From a virus, in the IMG/VR virus record IMGVR_UViG_3300035698_024294, positions 1 to 61,789 of that record: 61,789 nt of DNA. One strand, 5' to 3'. This document shows positions 11,780 to 50,447 of this stretch, one piece after another. How positions within the stretch are numbered: the stretch's first letter is position 1; every line of letters begins with the position of its first letter. Position numbers and translations under genes: made by a program. The notes under the pieces were generated by a model. It was not told where the DNA came from. It searched no databases and worked only from the letters and a program-made list of their open reading frames with translations.

Positions 11780-13930
11780 ATGGCAAAGAAAAAAGAAGTA
11801 ATAAAAGACACTGAAATAAATGTCTTCAATAACTTAGATAAACTAATTAACTCTCAGTTCAAGGATGTTATTGACTTATCTAAAGTAGATGGAAAAGTAA
11901 AAACGTGGTATGATACAGGAATTTATAGTCTTAATTATGCTATGTCGAAGCACCTCCTTAAAGCAATACCTTGTGGCAGGATATCATCTTTTGATGGGTT
12001 AAGTGGCTGTCTTTATGATAATACAATTATTAAGATAAATAGAGGTAATAGAAGTAATTATAGAGAATATACAATTGCAGAACTTTATAGAAAGTTTCAT
12101 AAATTTGGTCCTTTTGACAGAGGAGAGAAGCCTTGGAATAATAGTCCAACTAATACGTTTTCATTTAAAGGTGACTCTATAAGATATAATGAAATTACAA
12201 ACGTAATTGATTCTGGAACTAAGGAATGTTTTTTATTAAAAACAGAGTCTGGAAAGATGATAATAGTGTCTTCAGAACATCCGTTTAAAGTTCCTGATGA
12301 TAAAGTAGGAACGAGAGGTGTATTAGAAAAAGATAATTTTGTAGCATTAAAAGATTTGATTGTTGGTGAAGTAGTTATGGTCAAGTCAGACGCTAATAGT
12401 AAAGTCAAACTTGGCGGAAGAAAAAAAGGAAGAAGAGAAGTTTGTGGAGTAGAGTATCATCCGTATGCTTGGAAAAAAGAAACTGGTGATTATTCCTATA
12501 AAAGAATTCATTTTGCAAGACTTGTTGTTGAAGCTGATATGAATAACATATCGATTACAGAAATGATAAACTTTGTAAAAAATGAAGCACACAGATCAAA
12601 GTGTTTAAAGTATTTAACATCAGATTTAATTGTTCATCATAAAGATTTTAATCCTTCTAATGATGTTCTTGAAAATCTTAAGGTTATGACTAAAAAAGAA
12701 CACGACAAACTTCACGCAGAAGAAAAAAACTTTAGAGCGTTTGGGTATAATGAATTTCACTATGAAAAAATAACATCAATTAGTTCTGTTGGTGAAAAAC
12801 ATACATATGATATTAGAATGAAAAAACCATATAGTAATTTTGTTGCTGATGATTTCATAGTCCATAACACAGGAAAATCATTAATTGCAGCAACGGTAAT
12901 GAGAGATCCACAATTAGATATGGTTATTGTTATTGAAACAGAGGGTGGCGGTCAAGCAAAAGAATTAATTGAATTTGCTGGTGTTGATGCAAGCAAGGTA
13001 AGGATTCTTAAAGCTCATACATTTGGTAACTACAAAATTAATAAGAAGAATGGTAAAATTGACGAGGTTTCTGATAATAAATTTCCAGTAAAAATAGATA
13101 CACCTGAAAGTTTTTTTGTAGAAGGTGCAACACGAAAGATTAAGAAAATAGTTAACGCATTACAGTTTAATCCTAAACTTAGAGAAGCAAAGATTTTAAT
13201 TCTTCTTGATTCTCTTGGAAACTTACAATCAGTAAGAGAGTTTGGCGGAACTGTAGATATGGGTGCAAGAGCTCAGGATGTTGGAAAGTTTTTCAGAACT
13301 TTTGATACAGCATTTGAAAGATCTAATATAGCTTTCTTATTTACTAATAAGATATATAATTCTTTCAATATTTACGATCCTTATAAAGCAAATGGTGGAG
13401 TTAACGCAGCATATAATCCATCCGTAAGCGTAAGATTTACAGAGTTATCTGCTAACGAAGAAATTGCAGATAAGGATATGACAAAAGAAAAAGACAGAAG
13501 AAAAACTTCATTAGGAAGTTCTCTGAAGTCAATAAGAGGACAGATTACTAAATCAAGATTTGGTACAGAGCGTCGGAACGCTTGGTTCTTGTTTGATTAT
13601 GCGGTTGGGCCTGTTAGGCATTCTGGTCTATTTACATTATTGAAAGATTTTGGAATAGCGCAGAAAGTAGGAACTTTATATCTTATAGATGGTTGGAATA
13701 ATGATAAATCATTTTACAAGAAAAACTTTATTTCCATTTTGTTAAAAGATGAAGCTAAATCAATTCTTTATTTTCAGGATTTACTTGAGAAGAAAGAAAA
13801 AGAAATGATAGAAGAAAAGAAGAATCTTCAGATTAATGATTTGAGCGAATTAGAAGAAACTGAAGAAGAAGAAGGCGAATACGAAACTGCAGAAATGTTA
13901 ACTGCAATGGTAAAAGACGTAGAAGGTTAG
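11780..13930 (+). CDS. uvsX: UvsX/RecA-like recombinase containing an intein
   Basis: 716 residues as translated; about 429 after removal of the 287-residue intein (residues 77-363). The join restores the P-loop DGLSG + TGKS. Downstream are MVIVIETEGGG, a Walker B-like ILILLDSLGNLQS and a SxRFTELSAN segment; the C-terminus is acidic. UvsX forms filaments on ssDNA and drives strand invasion and recombination-dependent replication with gp32, UvsW and gp46/47, all encoded nearby. Ribosome site AGAGGAATA. It is followed 8 bases on by the GroES-like gene. Confidence 0.9.
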   Translation: MAKKKEVIKDTEINVFNNLDKLINSQFKDVIDLSKVDGKVKTWYDTGIYSLNYAMSKHLLKAIPCGRISSFDGLSGCLYDNTIIKINRGNRSNYREYTIAELYRKFHKFGPFDRGEKPWNNSPTNTFSFKGDSIRYNEITNVIDSGTKECFLLKTESGKMIIVSSEHPFKVPDDKVGTRGVLEKDNFVALKDLIVGEVVMVKSDANSKVKLGGRKKGRREVCGVEYHPYAWKKETGDYSYKRIHFARLVVEADMNNISITEMINFVKNEAHRSKCLKYLTSDLIVHHKDFNPSNDVLENLKVMTKKEHDKLHAEEKNFRAFGYNEFHYEKITSISSVGEKHTYDIRMKKPYSNFVADDFIVHNTGKSLIAATVMRDPQLDMVIVIETEGGGQAKELIEFAGVDASKVRILKAHTFGNYKINKKNGKIDEVSDNKFPVKIDTPESFFVEGATRKIKKIVNALQFNPKLREAKILILLDSLGNLQSVREFGGTVDMGARAQDVGKFFRTFDTAFERSNIAFLFTNKIYNSFNIYDPYKANGGVNAAYNPSVSVRFTELSANEEIADKDMTKEKDRRKTSLGSSLKSIRGQITKSRFGTERRNAWFLFDYAVGPVRHSGLFTLLKDFGIAQKVGTLYLIDGWNNDKSFYKKNFISILLKDEAKSILYFQDLLEKKEKEMIEEKKNLQINDLSELEETEEEEGEYETAEMLTAMVKDVEG
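12008..12868 (+). mobile_element. UvsX intein with HNH endonuclease domain
   Basis: Begins CLYDNTIIKI (Cys1, block A), has block B SSEHPFKVP, an HNH-type core LIVHHKDFNPSNDVLENL followed by KEHDKLH, and ends FVADDFIVHN before Thr+1. It sits inside the ATP-binding P-loop, so recombinase activity needs splicing. The endonuclease looks intact. Confidence 0.92.
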
Positions 13931-14247: not shown

Positions 14248-14411
14248 TGTTAGAGAGTAAAACTAAAAAAAAGATACTCGCCTTGTTAAAAGAGCAAGGC
14301 GGGCATAACGGAATTAGTTATTCAGGAAAAACTGAACTTTATACTATAAAATTTAACAAAGGTATTGTTATCAGTTTATCTTTTGATGAAATGAAGGAAC
14401 TTGAATTTTGA
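14247..14411 (+). CDS. small hypothetical protein between co-chaperonin and uvsW
   Basis: 54 residues, MLESKTKKKILALLKEQGG, ending MKELEF. It overlaps the co-chaperonin stop (TAATG) and the TTG start of uvsW (four bases), so all are translationally coupled. No family recognised. Confidence 0.6.
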   Translation: MLESKTKKKILALLKEQGGHNGISYSGKTELYTIKFNKGIVISLSFDEMKELEF

Positions 14412-16852
14412 AAATATTATTAACTGATTCTTACATAGCAATTGGTGATATATCTAAAGAAGTAATACTCAGCATAAAAGCTGAGTTTACTTATAAGGAC
14501 ATGTCTCAAGCAATGACTTCAAAAGGTTTTAATAAAAGAAAGATCAAAAAAGTATGCTTTGCAAAACAGAAAGGAAGCGCTTTAGTTTTAAGAGCTGGCT
14601 TTATAAAGGAATTACTTTTATTTATTAAAACAAATGGATACTCAGTTTCAGAGTTTCAGGATAAAAGAACTAAAGTAGAAATAAAAAAGTATACAGATGA
14701 ACAGTTAAGAAAACTGTTCGATCCAAAATTCAAATATGTTAAACATCAAATTAATTCGCTTCAAGCTTTATTAAAAACAAATGTAGGAATAATAAAAGCT
14801 CCTACTTCTGCTGGAAAGACTTCTATAATAATAGCTCTTATGAAATTGGTAAATATACCAACATTAATATTAGTTGATAGTGTGTCGTTAGCAACACAAA
14901 CGCTCGAAAGACTTAATGACGCTGGAATAAATTGTGGAATTTGTTATGGTAAAGGAAAAACTGATGGAGACCATGTGATTTCCACAATCGGTTCTTATAA
15001 AAAGCTTGGTGATTTAACCAGATATCAGAGAGTGATTGTAGATGAGTGTTTTCCAGGAGATACGAAAGTATTAACAGAAAATGGAAAAAAAACAATAGCA
15101 TCTTTGGTTAGATCGAAGTCTACTGAAAAAGTTTGGTCTTTCAGCGAAGAAACTGAAGGTTTTGAACTTAAAGAAATTTATAATTGGTATGAAAAGAAAA
15201 CTGAATCTAACTTAATAAAAGTTTGGTTTAACGGAATAGATTTTATTAAATCTACCCCTAATCATAAATATTATGTTTTAGAGAATAATTGTATTTTAGA
15301 AAAAAAGGCTGAAGATCTGAAGATCGGAGATGATTGCGTTGTTATGCCTAAAAAAACAAATAATAATAGAAGCATATCTCCTAAATTAAGTGAAAAACAA
15401 TACAAAGCAGCTATAGGTATGATTATCGGAGATGGTTGTATTCATAAGACGTCAAATCTTGCAAGGTTAGTTTTCTCTCAAGGAGAGGATCAATTAGATT
15501 ACTTGAATTATAAGTTATCTCTTCTTGATAACTTATATCAAAGAGATAATATAGCTGAAGGTGTTTCTGGATATAATGAAGAAAGGATAGTATACAACAC
15601 CTCAACACAGTCTTCTCAGGATTTTCTTGATTTATATGAGAAGTTTTATGTAAATGGTGTAAAAACAATTAAAAATATTATAAAAGAAATAGACGAAGTG
15701 AGCTTAGCTTTTTGGATAATGGATGATGGATGTCTTCAAAAAAAGTCTAAGACGTATGATCTATCAACTCATTCTTTTTCAAAAGAAGATAATGAGTTGA
15801 TAATGAAAGTATTTGAAGAAAAATTCGACATTTTATCAGTATTAAGATACGATAAAAGAATTGGAAAGTATTGGATCTATATAAGAAAAGAATCAACTGA
15901 AACAGTTTCTAGATTAATTTCTAAATATGTTCCTTCCTGTATGAATTATAAGTTGCTTGATGAAGATAAGAATAATTTTAATTTTATTATTGATGATAAG
16001 GTTTCTTATGGGATAAGAAGAGTTAGAAAAATAGAAGAGTTGATTCCTAGATTCAAGAACGTATACAACATATCAGTCAAAGATAATCATAATTATCTAG
16101 TTAATGATAACTTTCTTGTGTCTAATTGTCACATCGTTGGTTCAGCAAGGTTTCAGGAGTTTTTTGAAACAACAAGTTATCCATATAGATATGGATTTTC
16201 AGCAACACCTGATGGAAATGATAAATACAGATATGCTACTATTCGCCAGCATATTGGTGGAGAGATTTTTGAGATTTTTACTGATGAGCTGATGGAAAAT
16301 GAAGTAATGTCAAGACCTAAGATTAAATTTGTTCATGTTGATTGTATTGAAACACCGTCTTGGGATGCTGCGTATGAGAAATGTATTGTAAAGAATGAAT
16401 CCAGAAATAAGAAAATTGTAGAGTTAGCTAATCAGCAAGATGTTCCAACCCTTATTTTATATAAGATTATAGAACATGGAAAGATGCTTGGTGAAATGAT
16501 AGAAGGTTCTGTTGTATTAAATGGTAAAAGTACTGTTGCTGAAAGGCAAGATGCAATTGATAGATTTAAGTCTGGAGAAATTAAGTGTTTAATTGCTTCA
16601 AATATCTTCAAGCAAGGAATTTCTATCAATAACATTCAAACTTTAATAAATGCATCTGGCGGAAAATCAAAGATAGAAGTCCTTCAGAAGATAGGTAGAG
16701 CTCTCAGGCTTCACGAAGGAAAAGATTATGCACTCGTATATGACTTTATGGACGCAGGAAATAAGTATACAGATAGACACTCTCTTCAGAGAGAAAATCT
16801 GTATAGAAAAAATGGTTTTGATGATATAGAGTTTATAGAAGTAGAAGTTTGA
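14408..16852 (+). CDS. uvsW: UvsW-like superfamily 2 helicase containing an intein
   Basis: 814 residues as translated, about 454 after excision of the 360-residue intein (residues 214-573). Starts with TTG. Helicase motifs: Walker A APTSAGKTS (~residue 135), DExH box completed only by splicing (IVDE + CHIVG), motif III FSATP, then the second RecA domain with LIASNIFKQGISI and QKIGRALRL. UvsW rewinds and branch-migrates DNA and removes R-loops in the switch to recombination-dependent replication. It is the last gene of the SSB-uvsX-GroES segment and runs up to an early-type promoter. Confidence 0.88.
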   Translation: MKILLTDSYIAIGDISKEVILSIKAEFTYKDMSQAMTSKGFNKRKIKKVCFAKQKGSALVLRAGFIKELLLFIKTNGYSVSEFQDKRTKVEIKKYTDEQLRKLFDPKFKYVKHQINSLQALLKTNVGIIKAPTSAGKTSIIIALMKLVNIPTLILVDSVSLATQTLERLNDAGINCGICYGKGKTDGDHVISTIGSYKKLGDLTRYQRVIVDECFPGDTKVLTENGKKTIASLVRSKSTEKVWSFSEETEGFELKEIYNWYEKKTESNLIKVWFNGIDFIKSTPNHKYYVLENNCILEKKAEDLKIGDDCVVMPKKTNNNRSISPKLSEKQYKAAIGMIIGDGCIHKTSNLARLVFSQGEDQLDYLNYKLSLLDNLYQRDNIAEGVSGYNEERIVYNTSTQSSQDFLDLYEKFYVNGVKTIKNIIKEIDEVSLAFWIMDDGCLQKKSKTYDLSTHSFSKEDNELIMKVFEEKFDILSVLRYDKRIGKYWIYIRKESTETVSRLISKYVPSCMNYKLLDEDKNNFNFIIDDKVSYGIRRVRKIEELIPRFKNVYNISVKDNHNYLVNDNFLVSNCHIVGSARFQEFFETTSYPYRYGFSATPDGNDKYRYATIRQHIGGEIFEIFTDELMENEVMSRPKIKFVHVDCIETPSWDAAYEKCIVKNESRNKKIVELANQQDVPTLILYKIIEHGKMLGEMIEGSVVLNGKSTVAERQDAIDRFKSGEIKCLIASNIFKQGISINNIQTLINASGGKSKIEVLQKIGRALRLHEGKDYALVYDFMDAGNKYTDRHSLQRENLYRKNGFDDIEFIEVEV
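15047..16126 (+). mobile_element. UvsW intein with LAGLIDADG endonuclease
   Basis: Starts CFPGDTKVLT (block A), has block B TPNHKYYVL, two LAGLIDADG helices AAIGMIIGDG and LAFWIMDDG, and ends YLVNDNFLVSN before Cys+1. The C-terminal residue pair is Ser-Asn rather than His-Asn. Inserted exactly in the DECH box. Confidence 0.92.
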
Positions 16853-27827: not shown

Positions 27828-29117
27828 ATGAGCTTTTCGCACTTACATATCCATTCTCACATTGGAAGTCAATTGGATGGGGTAGGAACGCCTACCCAAT
27901 ATGCCGAATTGGCTAAAAAGATGGGTCATACATCTTTAGCAATTACAGACCACGGAAAAATGAATGGTCATTACGAACACTATCAAGCATGCAAAAAAGC
28001 TGGTATAAAACCTATCTTTGGAGTTGAGGCTTATGTAGAATTTGAGCTTGAAAGAATGGCTGAAGTTAAAGGAAAGGTGAAACGTCAAAGAAATAAAAAC
28101 ATGCATATGGTTTTATTGGCTAAGAACGAGATTGGATATAAAAACTTATTAAAGTTAAATTACTTATCTAATTCAGATGAAAAACATTATTATTACACAA
28201 ATCACATTTTAATTAAAGAAATTTTTGAGCATAAAGAAGGAATAATTATAGGAACTGCTTGTATGGGTTCTCCGTTTGCAAGATTATATAGAGATGATAA
28301 AAAAGATTTATCTGAAAAATTATTCAAGACTTTTAAGGAGCAGTTTGGAGAAGATTTTTACGCTGAAATTCAGATGAATGAAATTACTCATCCTATTGAT
28401 AATTTTGAGCATGGACAAAAATCTGTAAACGAATGGATGATTAGCCTTGCCAAAAAGTATGATGTTCCAATTGTAATGACGGGAGACGTTCACTATGCAG
28501 AACCAGGACTTGATAAAATTCAAACTCTTGCTATTGCAATAAGTAGAAAAACAACTCTTGCTGAATTAGATTGGAAGCTTGAAGGAAAAAGTTTATTCTA
28601 TATGGATGAAAGCGACTTTCATAAGTTTAATGAAGATTGGGATTATGGATACACAAAAGAAGAGATTGATGAATGGTGTAATAATACTCAATTGATTGCT
28701 GACAGATGTGAGTTTAAATTTATGGAAAGAAACAGATTGTTACTTCCGAAGTTTTCTAAGGATGATGATAGTTTATTGATTAAGGAAAGCAAGAATGGAC
28801 TCGTAAATAAAATGAAGCTTTCACTTTGGGAAGAAGTTCCAGTAAAATATAGAAAGCGACTTGTTAGAGAACTTGAAATTCTTTTAAGAAAAGGGTTTGC
28901 AAGTTATATTATGATTCTTTGGGATGTGTTTAACTTTTCAAAGAGAGAAAATATTATGAGAGGCCCTTCTCGCGGCTCTGGTGGAGGTTCTTTAGTTTTA
29001 TATTCCTTAGATATAACAACTTTAGATCCAATTGAATATGAACTGATTTTTGAAAGATTTCTTTCTGATGAACGTTCGATGGATGTTATATATGATTACT
29101 TTGGAGAAGCAATATGA
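27828..29117 (+). CDS. dnaE: DNA polymerase III alpha (DnaE), N-terminal piece: PHP domain and start of palm
   Basis: 429 residues. The PHP domain (1-~230) keeps metal-site motifs: HLHIHSHIGS, ITDHGKMNG, FGVEAYVE, GTACMGS and TGDVHYAEP, so proofreading by PHP is possible. Palm follows: MRGPSRGSGGGSLVLYSL, then TTLDPIEYELIFERFLSDER. In DnaE the next residues are SMPD(I/F)D.D with the catalytic Asp pair; here the frame reads SMDVIYDYFGEAI and stops, so the piece lacks all catalytic Asp. The missing part continues at 32087-33167 after 3 kb of other genes. Ribosome site AAAGGAGATAAA. ATGA overlap with the next gene. Confidence 0.92.
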   Translation: MSFSHLHIHSHIGSQLDGVGTPTQYAELAKKMGHTSLAITDHGKMNGHYEHYQACKKAGIKPIFGVEAYVEFELERMAEVKGKVKRQRNKNMHMVLLAKNEIGYKNLLKLNYLSNSDEKHYYYTNHILIKEIFEHKEGIIIGTACMGSPFARLYRDDKKDLSEKLFKTFKEQFGEDFYAEIQMNEITHPIDNFEHGQKSVNEWMISLAKKYDVPIVMTGDVHYAEPGLDKIQTLAIAISRKTTLAELDWKLEGKSLFYMDESDFHKFNEDWDYGYTKEEIDEWCNNTQLIADRCEFKFMERNRLLLPKFSKDDDSLLIKESKNGLVNKMKLSLWEEVPVKYRKRLVRELEILLRKGFASYIMILWDVFNFSKRENIMRGPSRGSGGGSLVLYSLDITTLDPIEYELIFERFLSDERSMDVIYDYFGEAI

Positions 29118-31757: not shown

Positions 31758-32100
31758 ATGTTAAAAGAGAAAAAAACTATGATAATTAAAGTTCCTAGGA
31801 AGAGATAAAGACGGAAATAAATGGACTGAAATTTTAGGTTATAATGCTGATGATTTATTAAAGCATTTTGGAGTTTCTTTTATTCCAGAAGAATATCAAA
31901 TAGATCATATAATTCCAATAGATTTATATAATTTTTGTGGAATAGATGAAGAATTTATGAAATGCTGGAATATTAGAAACTTAAGAATAATTCCAGCTAA
32001 AGAAAATCAAGCAAAAGGAAATAAGCTTGACAAAAAAAGAATAATTGAGTATAATATAATAAACTTGTTACCAAAGGAGATAATTTTTGAAGACATTTGA
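31758..32100 (+). pseudogene. decayed HNH endonuclease
   Basis: The ATG frame at 31758 stops after 16 codons. The next frame is open for ~95 codons with EILGYNADDLLKHFG, then YQIDHIIPIDLYNF and CWNIRNLRIIPAKENQAKGN, a clear HNH core of the phage intron type. A one-base shift near 31800 separates start and domain. The early-type promoter at 32027 lies inside its 3' part. Confidence 0.75.
32027..32055 (+). promoter_or_regulatory. early-type promoter for dnaE middle piece
   Basis: TTGACA, AAAAAAGAATAATTGAG, TATAAT. Followed by AAAGGAG and a TTG start at 32087. Confidence 0.88.
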
Positions 32101-33167
32101 AGACTTAAAAAGTCTTTGCGAAAAGTCAGAAAGATTTTTTGTTCTCACAGAAGAACAGAAAAAAAGATACAAAAAAGAAATTAGTGTAGCTAAAAGATTT
32201 TATGACAATGGAAGAAATTTATATAATGAATTAGTTGAAAAACAGTTAATGTTAAAAACTCAATATATAATTCCATACATTATAGGATTAACAGATATGT
32301 TAACTGATGAAAAACCAGTTTATATTCAAGTAAAGTCTGGAGCCTCAGGTGGTAAGGCTTATGCCACCCGTTATAGAAATATAGCGTAAAAAATGTTCTA
32401 AATTGTCGGGGAACTCCAGAGATGGACAATCCGCAGCGAAACCCGAAAGGGGACGTTCAACGACTATAATGGACTGCCTAAACGTAAAGACGTAGGTAAA
32501 GGGATAGTCTGATCTTACTATATAATCTAAAAAGAAAAGTAAGCTAACATAAATGATAGACATAGATACTGACTGGCAAGGGAATGGTCGTGAAAAAATA
32601 TATAACTATCTTAAAGAAAAATATGGTGAAGATAGAGTTCTTCACGTAGGAACGTTTTCTGCACTTGGGCCAGCTTCTGCTGCTAAAGATGTTTTAAGGG
32701 CTAATGGAGCAGACTTTGGAAAATCAAATAAGTTTACAAAAGTTCTTGAAAAGAATGAAACTTGGCAAGAAAATCTCGATAGGATTAAAAGAGAAGAGCC
32801 AGAAAATTGGAAGTTCTATTTAGCTAACGAGAAAATTTTTGAAAGTGTTCCTCATCTAATCGGAAAAATTCGTCAGAGCGGAAAACATGCTGGAGGTATT
32901 GTAGTAAGTGATAAACCTATTTACAATTATATTCCAGTTGATAGAGTTAATGGAGAAGTTGTAACAGCTTTTCCAGAATCTGGAAGTAACGCCGTTCTTG
33001 ATGAATTAGGTATTATTAAATATGATATTCTTGGTATATCAATTCTTGACGTTATGGCAGAAACTATTGATATGATTGATGAAGAAATTTATATGATTGA
33101 AGATGATGATGGAGTAATTAAATTTGTTCCTCAGAGTTATATTGATAAAGAAATAGAACAATTTTAA
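32087..33167 (+). CDS. dnaE: DnaE middle piece with catalytic aspartates, interrupted by a group I intron
   Basis: Read as join(32087-32353, 32556-33167), 292 residues. Exon 1 gives 89 residues from a TTG start (AAAGGAG), MKTFEDLKSLCEKSERFF to QVKSGASGG, which I cannot align to DnaE. Exon 2 opens IDIDTDWQGNGREK, the palm motif with two catalytic Asp, continues VLHVGTFSALGPASAAKDVL, GKHAGGIVV and ELGIIKYDILGIS (third catalytic Asp, equivalent to E. coli D555), and stops at the position where DnaE continues in the 34805 gene. Without splicing only a 100-residue peptide ending in the intron is made, so polymerase activity depends on splicing. Whether exon 1 replaces a lost N-terminal join is unknown. 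Confidence 0.8.
32354..32555 (+). ncRNA. group I intron, 202 nt, no ORF
   Basis: P1: exon GGTGGT (32348-32353) pairs with GCCACC (32363-32368), giving the U-G pair at the 5' splice site. P6 is CCC-GAAA-GGG with a GNRA loop. P7 is CGACTA (32461-32466) with TAGTC (32505-32509). P8 is CCTAAACGT/ACGTAGG. P9 is CTTAC/GTAAG. The last intron base is G32555. P10 pairs exon 2 AUAG with UUAU next to the guide. Both exons join in frame. The core resembles the T4 td-type (IA2) intron. Confidence 0.85.
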
Positions 33168-34804: not shown

Positions 34805-35476
34805 ATGAGAATAATAAAAAAGGTAACTAAACAAGAATTGAAAGATCGTCTGTATAATATTGATACAGGCGATCTTAATCTTTACAAAGAAGCTAACAAC
34901 GAAAATTCTATTGGTATTTTTCAACTCAATGGAAATCTTGCACACGAAATAATTAAAAAAGTAAAACCTCAAAATTTTGACGAGATAAATGCAGTCTCTG
35001 CTTTCGCAAGACCTGGAACATCAAGTTTCGTCGATAAATACATTAAAAACAGAGAAAATCATAAATCTCAGTATCCAGAAAAAATAGCTGCATTGTTACA
35101 AGAAACTCAATCCGTTGTTTTATATCAGGAACAGGCAATGTCTGTATTTAATAAGATTGGTGGATTTTCTCTTGAAGAGTGTTTAACTGGAGATACTATA
35201 ATTCTTACAAATAAAGGGGATATTTCAATAAAAGAAATAGTAGAAAATAAATTAGATATAAAAGTTTTATCACTGAATGAAGAAACTGGTGAACTTGAAA
35301 TGAAACCAGTGATTAAGTTCTTTAATAATGGAACAAGAGAACTAATAGAAATAGAGATAGAAGCAGGAAATGCTATAAAATGCACTCCAGAACATGAATT
35401 TTATACAAAGAATAGAGGCTGGATAGAAGCTAAAGATTTAACAGAAGAAGATGAACTTTTTCATAACCCATCGTAA
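34805..35476 (+). CDS. dnaE: DnaE third piece fused to N-terminal half of a split intein
   Basis: 223 residues. Residues 1-125 continue DnaE after the catalytic Asp: SIGIFQLNGNLAHEIIKKVK, FDEINAVSAFARPGTSSFVD, SVVLYQEQAMSVFNKIGG (fingers). After FSLEE the intein half starts at Cys126, CLTGDTIILT, with block B CTPEHEFYTK, and ends DELFHNPS with a stop. Residues 126-223 (98 aa) are a normal split-intein N half. The partner is at 36371. An HNH gene separates them, the layout called a fractured gene. The spliced product is DnaE residues joined as FSLEE + CDSIRGLM. Confidence 0.93.
   Translation: MRIIKKVTKQELKDRLYNIDTGDLNLYKEANNENSIGIFQLNGNLAHEIIKKVKPQNFDEINAVSAFARPGTSSFVDKYIKNRENHKSQYPEKIAALLQETQSVVLYQEQAMSVFNKIGGFSLEECLTGDTIILTNKGDISIKEIVENKLDIKVLSLNEETGELEMKPVIKFFNNGTRELIEIEIEAGNAIKCTPEHEFYTKNRGWIEAKDLTEEDELFHNPS
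35180..35473 (+). mobile_element. split intein, N half (DnaE)
   Basis: 98 codons from Cys1 (TGT 35180) to the stop, blocks A and B present. Split is at the canonical position between the horseshoe halves. Confidence 0.92.
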
Positions 35477-35496: not shown

Positions 35497-36381
35497 ATGA
35501 ACTATGAAAAAAACTATAATGATTATATTAATTATGTTAAATCTTTAAATAGAAAAAAAAGTGACTGTATGTATTATGAATTACATCATATAATCCCTAG
35601 AAGCTTAAAAGGAACAAACGATGACGGCAATTTAGTTTTGTTGACATATAGAGAGCATTATTTAGCCCATTTTTTATTATGGAAAATTTATAGCAATAAA
35701 GAAATGATGTATTCTTTTTGGTTAATGAATAACACAAAGAGCAAAGTTAAGTTTAACATAAGTTCAAGATTATATGAAAGTCTAAAAACTTCTTTTATAA
35801 AGGCACAAGAGAAAAAAGTTATTTGTTTAGAAACAGGTAGAGTTTTCGATTCTATGAAAAAAGCTTCCTCTTTTTATGACTTAACAAGTGCAGACGGGAT
35901 AAGGATTTCAATAAAGAATAAAAACAGTATTTCAGCTGGATATCATTGGGATTATTATTATGATAATATAGATTATACAAGAGATAAGTTTTACAAAAAA
36001 CAAAAAAATGTATATACTGTTATTAGGCTAGAGGACGTGGAAAAATATCTCTCTTATAAAGAGGCTGGAATAGATAATAACATAACAGGATCTACTATTT
36101 GTGATGCTGCAACTGGCAGAACAAAAACAGCCAATGGATATCATTGGAGTAAATTTGATAGCCTTGTTGATTATACTAAAAATAAGTTTTATAAAAAAGA
36201 AAGAATGTCATTTCCTTCTGGATACAAAAAAGTTGTTTGTATCGAAACAGGAAAAAAATATAATTCTCAGCAAGAAGCTGCTAGAGACATAGGATATAAA
36301 ATATCTGGAGATATAGGCAGATGTTGCGACGGAAAATTGAAGTCTTGTGGCGGATTTCGCTGGAGAAGAAATGAAAATTAA
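35497..36381 (+). CDS. HNH endonuclease with NUMOD1 repeats, inside the split-intein gap
   Basis: 294 residues. HNH core YYELHHIIPRSLKGTNDDGN, then LVLLTYREHYLAHFLL. The rest holds three NUMOD1-like DNA-binding repeats: VICLETGRVFDSMKKAS, an internal copy YLSYKEAGIDNNITGSTI, and VVCIETGKKYNSQQEAA, each ending in (A/G)GYHW or CGGFRW. It lies exactly between the two intein halves and overlaps the C half by 11 bases. It presumably targets intein-free dnaE. Confidence 0.88.
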   Translation: MNYEKNYNDYINYVKSLNRKKSDCMYYELHHIIPRSLKGTNDDGNLVLLTYREHYLAHFLLWKIYSNKEMMYSFWLMNNTKSKVKFNISSRLYESLKTSFIKAQEKKVICLETGRVFDSMKKASSFYDLTSADGIRISIKNKNSISAGYHWDYYYDNIDYTRDKFYKKQKNVYTVIRLEDVEKYLSYKEAGIDNNITGSTICDAATGRTKTANGYHWSKFDSLVDYTKNKFYKKERMSFPSGYKKVVCIETGKKYNSQQEAARDIGYKISGDIGRCCDGKLKSCGGFRWRRNEN

Positions 36382-36472
36382 AAACATAAAAAAAATTGAA
36401 TCAGAAACTGTTTACGATATAAAAGTTAAAGATAACCATAACTTTTTTGCTAATAACGTTTTGGTTCATAAT
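36371..36472 (+). mobile_element. split intein, C half (DnaE)
   Basis: 34 codons ending His-Asn before Cys+1 (36473), matching the N half at 35180. Confidence 0.92.
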
Positions 36473-37615
36473 TGCGATAGTATTCGTGGTCTTATGAAAA
36501 AACTTGGAAAGGCTGAAAAAAAGAAAGAAGATCTTGATAAATGGGATGTCGTTATTAAACGATTTACAAAAGGAGCACAAGAAACTGGTATCTCTTTAAA
36601 AGATGCAAAAAATGTTGCTAGCGATATGCTTAAAATGTCGTCGTACCAATTTAATAAATCTCATGCAACTGCATATACTTTTATTGCAGCTCAAACTTTG
36701 TATTTATCATATTACTTTAGAAAATACTTTTATGCGTCAGTTCTCCATTACGAGGTAGGACGAGATAAGTATCTTTTAGAGAGATTAAAATCTGTTAAGT
36801 CTCAAGGGTTTAACATACTTCCTCCAGATGTAAACAAATCAAAAATAAGTTTATCTCCTGTTAAAGGAAGCGCAAACTCTATTATCTTTGGATTATATGA
36901 TGTTAAAGGTATTGGAGAAGTTCCGGCAACTACTATTAAATCGTTACAACCATTTGATTCAATGATAGATTTCATTCTTAAAATTCAGGGTAAAAGAATT
37001 TCTATTACTGTTATAAAGGCTCTCGTTGTAGCAGGTGCTTTTGATGATATAGAGGATTATGATAAGAAGATTTTATATGAAGCTGTTCTTTTATTCTGGA
37101 AGGATAAGAAGTCGACAAAAGTTCCAGAAAAGTTAGAGCAGATTTGGGATGCTTCTTTACAAACAGTTATAGAGACAACTCTTCCAGCTACGTTTGAGGA
37201 ACAGAAAGACTATGAAAGAAAATCTCTTGGGTTTAATTTCTTTATAAATTCTTTCACAGAAGAGTTCTTATCAGCAATTGATGTTCTTGTCAAGAAAGGA
37301 TTAGCTTATCCGTCAATAGATAAAGTAAGAAAAGGATCTGCTAAAGTTCCTGTAGTTGTTAATAAGATTAAAACCCTTAACGACAAGAATGGTAAAGAAA
37401 TGGCTTTTCTTGATTTAGAAGATCAATTAGGCCAAGACTTAAGCGTTCCAATATTTCAAAGTTTTTGGAAGGTTCTGAAGACAAGGTTTGTTGAAGGTAA
37501 GATGCATATGATAAATTTGTATCTTGATGATGATCAGGTTATGTTCGGAAAGAGTGGATATGTCAGGAAGGATATGGAAATTTCAAGAATGGTGAAGAGA
37601 TTAGATAACCTGTAA
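36371..37615 (+). CDS. dnaE: C-terminal half of split intein fused to DnaE C-terminal piece
   Basis: 414 residues from ATG 36371 (TGGAGAAGAA); an upstream ATG at 36347 lies within the HNH gene. Residues 1-34, MKIKNIKKIESETVYDIKVK to NNVLVHN, are the intein C half (blocks F and G), followed by Cys+1. DnaE continues CDSIRGLMKKLGKAEKKKED, SSYQFNKSHATAYTFIAAQT (fingers), GFNILPPDVNKS, YDVKGIGEVPA (HhH) and an OB-like C-terminal region. A clear clamp-binding peptide is not visible. About 505 DnaE residues result after trans-splicing with the 34805 product. Confidence 0.93.
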   Translation: MKIKNIKKIESETVYDIKVKDNHNFFANNVLVHNCDSIRGLMKKLGKAEKKKEDLDKWDVVIKRFTKGAQETGISLKDAKNVASDMLKMSSYQFNKSHATAYTFIAAQTLYLSYYFRKYFYASVLHYEVGRDKYLLERLKSVKSQGFNILPPDVNKSKISLSPVKGSANSIIFGLYDVKGIGEVPATTIKSLQPFDSMIDFILKIQGKRISITVIKALVVAGAFDDIEDYDKKILYEAVLLFWKDKKSTKVPEKLEQIWDASLQTVIETTLPATFEEQKDYERKSLGFNFFINSFTEEFLSAIDVLVKKGLAYPSIDKVRKGSAKVPVVVNKIKTLNDKNGKEMAFLDLEDQLGQDLSVPIFQSFWKVLKTRFVEGKMHMINLYLDDDQVMFGKSGYVRKDMEISRMVKRLDNL

Positions 37616-48511: not shown

Positions 48512-49225
48512 TTGTCAAAAAAAGAAAACTTAAAATTACCAAGTGAAATATTAGAACCATATATCATAGTTCATTCATTAAATAATATTTCATTTTTCTT
48601 AAAAATTAAACAGTATCTATTTACAAGTAGTGATAACAAATCATATTTTACAGACAAAAAGCTGCAAAGGATATTTAACGGTATCTGTAAGTGGCATAAT
48701 AAGTTCTCAACCTTTCCGAAAGAGAAAGAACTTCTTATCATAATAGACAAAACAGAAAAAGACGAAGCTGTAAAAATTCTTGTAAAATCGAAAATAAGGG
48801 AGTTATATAATGGAGATCCGGGAGATCTGGATGTTAGATATGTAGAAGAAGAAACAAAGAAATTTATTCAAGAAAATCAAGTATATGAAGCAATACTAAA
48901 TTCGCAAGTAGATATTGATGCAGGAAACTTTGGTGCAATTTCAGAAAGAATGACTAAGGCTGTTACTGTTAATTTTGATAAAGATTTAGGAATTAGTATT
49001 CGCGATGTAGCAGCCGGAATTGCTGAAATCAATTCTCTGAACGATGAATCAGTTATTCCTTCAGACTTTGATACGTTAGATAGCGAATCGGTGTTAGATG
49101 GTGGATTTCGTAACGATGAAATTTATGTATTCGCTGCAATTCCTGGACTTGGAAAATGTTGTTTTCGGGATATAAAGGTAATGATATCCTACGAAATTGA
49201 TACAGAAACTGGAGAAATAATGTAA
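48512..49225 (+). CDS. gp41/DnaB-type replicative helicase N-terminal piece fused to a 22-residue N-intein
   Basis: 237 residues from TTG (AGGGAGAAGG). The N-terminal domain and linker lead to DGGFRNDEIYVFAAIPGLGK, the start of the RecA-type Walker A. The intein begins at Cys216, CCFRDIKVMISYEIDTETGE, and the frame stops after 22 intein residues. Cys1, Asp and Val match block A. The rest of the intein and the helicase core are in the 49344 gene. Without trans-splicing the P-loop is broken and the helicase is dead. Confidence 0.9.
   Translation: MSKKENLKLPSEILEPYIIVHSLNNISFFLKIKQYLFTSSDNKSYFTDKKLQRIFNGICKWHNKFSTFPKEKELLIIIDKTEKDEAVKILVKSKIRELYNGDPGDLDVRYVEEETKKFIQENQVYEAILNSQVDIDAGNFGAISERMTKAVTVNFDKDLGISIRDVAAGIAEINSLNDESVIPSDFDTLDSESVLDGGFRNDEIYVFAAIPGLGKCCFRDIKVMISYEIDTETGEIM
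49157..49222 (+). mobile_element. atypical split intein, N half (helicase)
   Basis: 22 codons only, split right after block A. This resembles the atypically split class with very short N halves such as AceL-TerL. Confidence 0.88.
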
Positions 49226-49347
49226 TGGGGAGAGCAGAAAGAGAGTTTATTTGTATAATTTGCGGTAAAACTTTTCTAAGAAATATGAAAAACAAATATC
49301 AAGACAGATTAGAAATAAAACACGATCCATATGAGGAAGCTAAGTGA
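49225..49347 (+). CDS. small Cys-pair protein in the split-intein gap, possible endonuclease remnant
   Basis: 40 residues, MGRAEREFICIICGKTFLRN, one zinc-finger-like CxxC. It overlaps both flanking genes (TAATG and GTGATT). In other fractured genes a homing endonuclease fills this place; this may be its vestige. Confidence 0.55.
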   Translation: MGRAEREFICIICGKTFLRNMKNKYQDRLEIKHDPYEEAK

Positions 49348-49763
49348 TTAAAACAATAACAGAAGAAATAGAAGTTGGAAAACTTTTTAAGAAATTAAAC
49401 ATTAATAGCCAAGGAACATATAAAGCTCCATCCTCATTAAAAGTAAAAACTGTTGATGGATATAAAAAAGTTAATGGATTATTAAGAACTCAACTCAATC
49501 CAGAATGGGTTGTTAAAACCGAATCTGGAAGAGAGGCTATTTTTGCTGATAAGCATAAATTAGAAGTAAAGAAATCTAATATGCTTGATGTTAATAGATT
49601 TTGGAAGCATGTAGACAATTTAGTAATTGGAGAAGAAGTAAATACAGAAAATGGTTGGGAAAAAATAACAGAATGTTATTTTAATGGTAATGAAAGCGAA
49701 ATGTATGACATGGAAGTGTCTAAGGTTAAGAGCTTTTATGCTAATGGATTTAATTCGCATAAC
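49344..49763 (+). mobile_element. atypical split intein, C half (helicase)
   Basis: 140 codons ending Ser-His-Asn, then Thr+1 at 49764. No endonuclease domain inside; total intein 162 residues. Confidence 0.9.
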
Positions 49764-50447
49764 ACAGCTTTGCTTGGAAACATTGCTGTAAATTCTTTCC
49801 TTCAGGGAAAGAATGTTTTAGTGTATACTTTTGAAACATCTAAGAAGAGACTTCTTTCAAGGTATTACTCAAATTTAATTGAAATGACTAAGAAAGAGAT
49901 TATAATAGATAATCAAAAGACAGAAGATGAACTGAATAATGTAATGGCACAAACTACTGGAGATATTATTCTAAAAGAATATCCGGCAAATACAACATCT
50001 TCTAATGACCTTCTGGCTCACATTAACGACTTGTGGCTTTACAAGAAGTGGAAACCTGACATTATCATTGGTGATTATATCTTAATTATGGCAGCTAACG
50101 ATAAATCATTAAAATCAGATAATTCATATAAATATTATAAAACTGTAACAGAAGAATTTAGAAATTTATGTTGTTTGCTTCACATACCGGGAGTTTCAGC
50201 AACGCAGATAAACAGAGCAGGACAAGATGATCGTGGTGGTTCAAAAGCATTAACAACATCAAAAGATATTTCAGAAAGTCGTGGTATTTACGATACAGCA
50301 GATTTTTTCGCTACTATAAATCAGACAGCGAAAGATAGAGAATTTGGTAAGATTATGATTTACGTCGACAAAAATCGCAACTCAAATAAAGGAGCGAAGA
50401 TTAAAATGAGCATAGACTATGAACATATGCGCTTTAGTGAGATATAA
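49344..50447 (+). CDS. C half of atypical split intein fused to helicase core
   Basis: 367 residues from GTG. Residues 1-140 are the large C half: MIKTITEEIEVGKLFKKLN, block B-like ADKHKLEVK, block F EMYDMEVSKVKSFYANG, ending FNSHN before Thr+1. Splicing gives PGLGK + TALLGNIAVNSF, an intact Walker A. Helicase motifs follow: VLVYTFETSKKRLLSRYYS, DIIIGDYILIM (Walker B), VSATQINRAGQDDRGGSKAL and YVDKNRNSNKGAKI. It is the gp41/DnaB-type fork helicase partner of the primase. Confidence 0.92.
   Translation: MIKTITEEIEVGKLFKKLNINSQGTYKAPSSLKVKTVDGYKKVNGLLRTQLNPEWVVKTESGREAIFADKHKLEVKKSNMLDVNRFWKHVDNLVIGEEVNTENGWEKITECYFNGNESEMYDMEVSKVKSFYANGFNSHNTALLGNIAVNSFLQGKNVLVYTFETSKKRLLSRYYSNLIEMTKKEIIIDNQKTEDELNNVMAQTTGDIILKEYPANTTSSNDLLAHINDLWLYKKWKPDIIIGDYILIMAANDKSLKSDNSYKYYKTVTEEFRNLCCLLHIPGVSATQINRAGQDDRGGSKALTTSKDISESRGIYDTADFFATINQTAKDREFGKIMIYVDKNRNSNKGAKIKMSIDYEHMRFSEI

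What the first reader, a model, noticed from the sequence alone, without database searches (positions are those of the whole stretch)
48512..50447. Atypically split intein (22 + 140 residues) in the replicative helicase P-loop
The split falls directly after block A, giving a 22-residue N half and 140-residue C half, like the rare AceL-TerL class. It breaks Walker A (GLGK | T), so no helicase activity is possible before trans-splicing. The gap holds a 40-residue Cys-pair ORF that may be an endonuclease remnant.
Basis: partly seen in the sequence, partly recalled or inferred. Interest (0 to 1): 0.82.

Follow-up and report, generated by a model that had tools for sequence, protein, structure and literature searches.

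The report
Split intein inside phage replicative helicase
A phage makes its replication helicase as two separate protein halves that a self-splicing 'split intein' must stitch together in the middle of the ATP-binding loop; it is real, and it belongs to a wider group of similar split inteins that already has characterised members.

Summary
A T4 gp41-like (DnaB-family) helicase is cut inside Walker A: ...GLGK plus a 22-residue intein N-piece (48512-49225), then a 140-residue intein C-piece plus TALLG... (49344-50447). A relative virus (L001) carries the same helicase uninterrupted (...GLGKTALLG..., 80% identical to the joined exteins), which fixes the splice sites to the residue. A sequencing or assembly error does not explain the split: the gap is 121 nt (not a multiple of 3), N-frame read-through meets six stops, and 22+140=162 residues is already a whole intein (159 in a contiguous relative). 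I found ten more atypically split inteins at the identical GK|S/T site in other environmental phage helicases. In one of them the halves lie 76 kb apart. The 40-residue ORF resembles the N-terminal zinc finger of nucleases that sit in this gap in relatives, but not to statistical significance. Verdict: a new member of a known kind, with an informative family around it. Splicing itself is inferred, not shown.

The parts
48512..49156 (+). N-terminal half of the gp41/DnaB-like replicative helicase (N-extein), ending in the Walker A residues GLGK
   Evidence: phrog_19 DnaB-like replicative helicase, E 1.1e-15; aligned with intact helicase of L001
49157..49222 (+). IntN, 22 residues CCFRDIKVMISYEIDTETGEIM, Cys1 start; stop codon TAA at 49223-49225
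   Evidence: absent from intein-free L001; aligns with IntN of relatives CCKGNTKITV.., CCVSGTYIKI.., CVHPDTLITI..
49225..49347 (+). 40-residue ORF with CxxCGKxF...KH; its ATG overlaps the IntN stop (TAATG) and its TGA overlaps the IntC start (GTGA). Possible zinc-finger remnant of a gap endonuclease
   Evidence: no homologue in phages; weak likeness to zinc finger of the L259 nuclease
49344..49763 (+). IntC, 140 residues: helix alpha-1, block B (FADKH, Ala in place of Thr, His kept), block F (MYDMEV), block G (NSHN)
   Evidence: Pfam Intein_splicing weak 0.019; 37% identity to TerL mini-intein, E 1e-8; AlphaFold pLDDT 81 and Foldseek matches to inteins incl. VidaL 6vgv and gp41-1 6qaz
49764..50447 (+). 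C-terminal half of the helicase (C-extein), starting with Thr+1 of Walker A (TALLGN)
   Evidence: DnaB_C 3.9e-12, phrog_19 4e-45 from profile 367; 85% identical to L001 from residue 141 on

Best explanation
This is a naturally and atypically split intein (S1 position, VidaL-type) that interrupts the Walker A loop of a phage gp41-like replicative helicase. The two helicase halves are translated separately from adjacent ORFs, with a small ORF overlapping both in between. The 22-residue IntN inserts into the otherwise complete IntC HINT fold. Cys1 attacks the Lys-Cys bond, the N-extein moves to Thr+1, Asn140 cyclises, and GLGK is joined to TALLG, restoring GLGKT. The split probably arose when a homing endonuclease gene entered a contiguous mini-intein gene. 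Relatives still carry that nuclease, in whole or as fragments; here only a 40-residue ORF remains. Shown: anatomy, splice boundaries, split, homology, predicted fold, recurrence. Inferred: that splicing occurs, its chemistry, and the origin of the gap.
For: Intein-free orthologue with exact empty site. Catalytic residues present: Cys1, block B His, block F Asp, penultimate His, terminal Asn, Thr+1. IntC homologous to contiguous TerL mini-inteins that also sit at GK|T. Predicted HINT fold. Ten further split inteins at the identical helicase site: where both halves are on the record, the phrog_19 match of the N half usually ends at position 366 and that of the C half starts at 367-369. In G009 and G010 the halves are about 76 kb apart (N 104156-104728, C 28338-29024 in G009). 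Gap nucleases or remnants in seven of them. Shine-Dalgarno-like GGAG / GAGG before ORF2 and IntC and start/stop overlaps.
Against: No splicing data. Block B Thr is Ala and the block F His is absent (VKSFYANG), though the same Ala is common in the group and in the TerL inteins. The window's IntC is only 22-32% identical to the other group members, and the tree leaves its place unresolved. Only one copy of this exact arrangement is known, from one metagenomic contig.
Confidence: 0.88

Rival explanations
1. A frameshift or assembly error breaks a contiguous intein.
For: Single metagenomic contig; the gap is short.
Against: Three frames, 121-nt gap, six stops in the N frame; N+C already equals a full mini-intein; the same split architecture recurs in ten other loci.
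Confidence: 0.03
2. The element is decaying: the intein is split by mutation, no longer splices, and the helicase is dead or replaced by another helicase.
For: 40-aa gap ORF looks like debris; block B Thr lost; divergent intein; the window is a 61.8-kb fragment, so a second helicase elsewhere cannot be excluded.
Against: All core catalytic residues kept; exteins open and 80% identical to the intact orthologue; start/stop overlaps suggest the three ORFs are translated together; no other match to the helicase C-half in the window.
Confidence: 0.07
3. The 40-residue ORF is a functional small zinc protein (for example a regulator of splicing or a chaperone of IntN) rather than a nuclease remnant.
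For: Ribosome-binding-like site and overlapping start and stop codons suggest it is translated; CxxCGKxF retained.
Against: No homologue found; the same gap in relatives holds nucleases, several with N-terminal zinc fingers, or their fragments.
Confidence: 0.15

Closest known systems
VidaL atypically split intein (PDB 6vgv)
   Same: S1 split: short IntN, helix alpha-1 in IntC; Cys-dependent; best PDB match to the group profile (E 6e-14); shares CA..H block B and the NHRYY..GI.SH end with the group
   Different: IntN 16 aa (PMC13014065) versus 22; its host gene could not be checked here (from memory it is a T4-like helicase, 'T4Lh-1')
AceL-TerL / GOS-TerL / Cat inteins
   Same: Short IntN (25-37 aa) and long IntC; phage gene; HINT fold (6dsl matched)
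   Different: Split after alpha-1 (S2, PMC13014065); in terminase, not helicase; eight of the ten relatives at this helicase site are S2, the window is not
gp41-1 split intein (PDB 6qaz)
   Same: Split intein in a gp41-type helicase of a T4-like phage
   Different: Canonical split (long IntN, short IntC); inserted at TRSGY|SSSDV, another helicase motif (insertion site from memory)
TerL contiguous mini-intein of Ackermannviridae (e.g. Klebsiella phages)
   Same: Same GK|T position in a P-loop, 37% identity with IntC, similar AxxH block B
   Different: Contiguous, in terminase
Fractured genes with split inteins and a nuclease ORF between the halves (Dassa et al. 2009, paper not held; known from citations and memory)
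   Same: Two half genes, split intein, nuclease or remnant between them
   Different: Here the nuclease is reduced to a 40-aa ORF of unproven origin

Membership tests
Split intein (class 1) | Cys/Ser at position 1, block B His, C-terminal His-Asn, Cys/Ser/Thr at +1 | tested here: met
   C1, FADKH, NSHN, T+1
Split intein (class 1) | Interrupts a gene that is intact in relatives, at a conserved motif | tested here: met
   L001 intact GLGKTALLG
Split intein (class 1) | HINT fold | tested here: met
   AlphaFold of IntC, pLDDT 81; Foldseek E down to 7e-7 to inteins; IntN itself not modelled
Split intein (class 1) | Trans-splicing activity | not testable with these tools
   needs co-expression assay
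Atypical S1 split (VidaL type) | Split after beta-2 and before alpha-1; short IntN | tested here: met
   IntN 22 aa; alpha-1 at IntC 11-18; definition from PMC13014065
Atypical S1 split (VidaL type) | Clusters with VidaL in a tree | tested here: inconclusive
   tree unresolved, long branches
AceL-TerL type (S2 split) | Split after alpha-1 | tested here: not met
   alpha-1 is in IntC
Canonical split intein | IntN about 100 aa, IntC about 35-50 aa | tested here: not met
   22 + 140
Fractured gene with nuclease between halves | Nuclease ORF between the split halves | tested here: inconclusive
   Met in L155, L171, L230, L231 (full ORFs); in the window only a 40-aa ORF with weak zinc-finger likeness

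The most novel reading that the evidence does not exclude
One intein lineage at the helicase Walker A site has been broken at more than one backbone position (S1 in the window, L120 and L223; S2 in the others) by nuclease-gene insertion. The nuclease is then lost and the halves may drift far apart in the genome (76 kb in G009), leaving phages permanently dependent on trans-splicing to make their replicative helicase.
Probability: 0.35. Interest if true: 0.65.

Novelty: new member of a known kind. Interest (0 to 1): 0.52.

Why it matters
Natural inteins with a short IntN are rare and useful, because the short half can be made synthetically for protein labelling. This gives a 22-residue S1 example plus ten relatives at one insertion site, several with their nuclease still in place. 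The set shows what look like successive states of a split gene, from full nuclease through fragments to a 40-aa ORF and to unlinked halves, so the origin of split inteins can be tested by comparison. It also appears to make an essential replication protein wholly dependent on protein splicing.

Tried and rejected
Frameshift or assembly error: rejected on frames, stops and lengths. AceL-TerL class: rejected on split position. Homologues of the window's intein by back-translated peptide scans: none, so I searched by a DNA pattern across the HN|T...GKNVL junction instead. Homology of the 40-aa ORF: tblastn none; Pfam and PHROGs only sub-threshold matches; zinc-finger HMM not better than shuffles; pairwise only suggestive. 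Intein tree to order S1 and S2 splits: unresolved, long branches. Search for the term T4Lh: no paper held; the Burton 2020, Bachmann 2015 and Dassa 2009 papers are not held. Klebsiella phage TTM-TASP117 TerL looked split but the record has a run of N there, so it is most likely an assembly gap.

Full report
WHAT IS THERE. In the window, a T4 gp41-like, DnaB-family replicative helicase is encoded in two pieces. The first ORF (48512-49225) matches phrog_19 (DnaB-like replicative helicase, E 1.1e-15) and ends ...AAIPGLGK followed by CCFRDIKVMISYEIDTETGEIM and a stop. The third ORF (49344-50447) begins with 140 residues ending NSHN and then continues TALLGN..., matching DnaB_C (3.9e-12) and phrog_19 from profile position 367. 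A 40-residue ORF lies between them (49225-49347).

EMPTY SITE. A relative virus record (L001, 201,184-bp IMG/VR contig) carries the same helicase as one 443-aa ORF reading ...AAIPGLGKTALLGN.... The exteins of the window, joined, are 80% identical to it. This fixes the splice junctions at GLGK|C and HN|T and shows that 49157-49763 (607 nt) is what was added. No relative of the window's IntC was found in the L001 record.

NOT AN ERROR. The gap between the last IntN codon and the IntC GTG is 121 nt, the three ORFs are in three frames, and the N frame meets six stops in the gap. IntN plus IntC is 162 residues, against 159 for the contiguous homologous TerL intein. No single frameshift would give a contiguous intein, and nothing is missing from the pair.

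FAMILY. By itself the window's IntC matches contiguous TerL mini-inteins of Ackermannviridae (37% identity, E 1e-8), which also sit at a P-loop GK|T. Most are contiguous Ala1 inteins with LAGLIDADG-like cores. Ten distinct helicases besides the window carry an atypically split intein (L098, L102, L120, L155, L171, L213, L223, L224/L229, L230, L231). Their IntN pieces, where present, are 30-47 residues and begin C (CC in L098, L102 and L155, as in the window). phrog_19 matches of the N halves end at 366 in most records (353 in G003, L102; none found in G007, L213, a fragment) and those of the C halves start at 367-369. In G009 and G010, two contigs with near-identical matches that may be close kin, the two halves lie about 76 kb apart, with IntN CVCAESEICVRNKKTGQTMKIPIGDFFKMIENGKTN. 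There only trans-splicing, or non-covalent assembly, can make the helicase.

SPLIT POSITION. PMC13014065 puts VidaL and PolB16 at S1 (after beta-2) and AceL-TerL and GOS-TerL at S2 (after alpha-1). In the window alpha-1 (TEEIEVGKLFKKL) is in IntC; AlphaFold on the group alignment (pLDDT 81) makes a helix at IntC 11-18 followed by HINT strands. Foldseek matches are inteins, including VidaL (6vgv), gp41-1 (6qaz) and Cat (6dsl). By sequence the group profile matches VidaL best (6e-14), then gp41-1 (2e-11), with Cat lower (7e-8); that profile is dominated by S2 members, so it speaks for the group more than for the window alone. From inspection of the sequences, L120 and L223 are also S1-like and the other eight are S2 (for L213 the N half is not on the contig, so this rests on IntC alone). 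The tree cannot say whether S1 arose once.

THE GAP. In L155, L171, L230 and L231 the gap holds a full nuclease ORF of 340-382 residues. The two tested match Pfam MTES_1575 / DUF559 at scores at or below the curated cut-off. I take these as the EDxHD (Vsr-like) homing endonucleases of the fractured-gene paper, but that paper is not held and the identification is from memory. In L098 the nuclease is frame-broken, in L102 a 41-aa C-terminal piece remains, and in L223 an N-terminal zinc-finger piece and a C-terminal piece remain. Several of the nucleases start with a CxxC...H...H finger right after IntN. The window's ORF2 has CIICGKTF...IKH near its start; the best pairwise likeness is to the L259 nuclease of the L231 virus (CKLCGKEF...SH), p 0.0015 against plain shuffles but 0.02 when the motif is kept, best of five, and an HMM test is negative. 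So 'nuclease remnant' is likely from position and unproven from sequence.

MECHANISM. IntN docks on IntC; Cys1 forms the thioester at Lys-Cys; transfer to Thr+1; Asn140 cyclisation; product GLGKT. This is the established class 1 pathway applied by inference to conserved residues. Because the Lys and the Thr of Walker A are on different polypeptides, ATP hydrolysis before splicing is very unlikely, but this is untested. Overlapping start and stop codons (TAATG at 49223-49227, GTGA at 49344-49347) with GGAG and GAGG upstream suggest coupled translation of the three ORFs, which would keep the halves in balance.

VERDICT. Real, ordinary in mechanism, uncommon in kind. A new member of the known class of atypically split inteins, closer to VidaL than to AceL-TerL in split position. 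The surrounding family, with both split positions and several stages of nuclease loss at one insertion site, is the more interesting result.

Noticed in passing
window 34805-35476, 35497-36381, 36347-37615: DNA polymerase III alpha is also split by an intein, this one canonical: IntN CLTGDT..., an HNH/NUMOD nuclease ORF between, IntC ending HN|C.
   Followed up: partly
window 27828-29117, 32087-32389, 32553-33167: The same polymerase is broken again at its PDIDxD active-site motif (...ERSM / IDIDTDW) with Dda-like helicase and other genes between, and no Rfam match even at a relaxed threshold. L001's virus has a similar break (G001:171839 and 174040), its second piece reading ...VKSGASGG-IDIDTD.
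   Followed up: partly
window 11780-13930: UvsX/RecA-like gene with a contiguous intein carrying an HNH domain in its P-loop (SG|C...HN|TGKS).
   Followed up: partly
window 14408-16852: UvsW-like helicase with a LAGLIDADG intein. The window thus has at least four inteins, all in DNA replication or repair genes.
   Followed up: no
L272/L273 (virus of L001): Polymerase III alpha of the relative has another canonical split intein (GKIRQ|CLPWN... and ...HN|SGKHAGG) with a zinc-finger HNH ORF between the halves.
   Followed up: partly
G009:C1:28338-29024 and 104156-104728; also G010: Helicase halves with matching split intein pieces about 76 kb apart on one contig.
   Followed up: partly
L088, L091, L095, L101, L106 and many others: Contiguous Ala1 LAGLIDADG-type inteins are common at the very same helicase GK|T site in environmental phages.
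   Followed up: no
L263 3007-3900 (Salicola phage SCTP-2): An isolated phage whose terminase C-half starts with an atypically split IntC 46% identical to that of L155; an N-terminal terminase piece lies far away at 429407-429694. A possible laboratory case.
   Followed up: partly
L001 4681-6156: A 491-aa nuclease-like gene (Vsr-like by eye) follows directly on the intein-free helicase gene.
   Followed up: no
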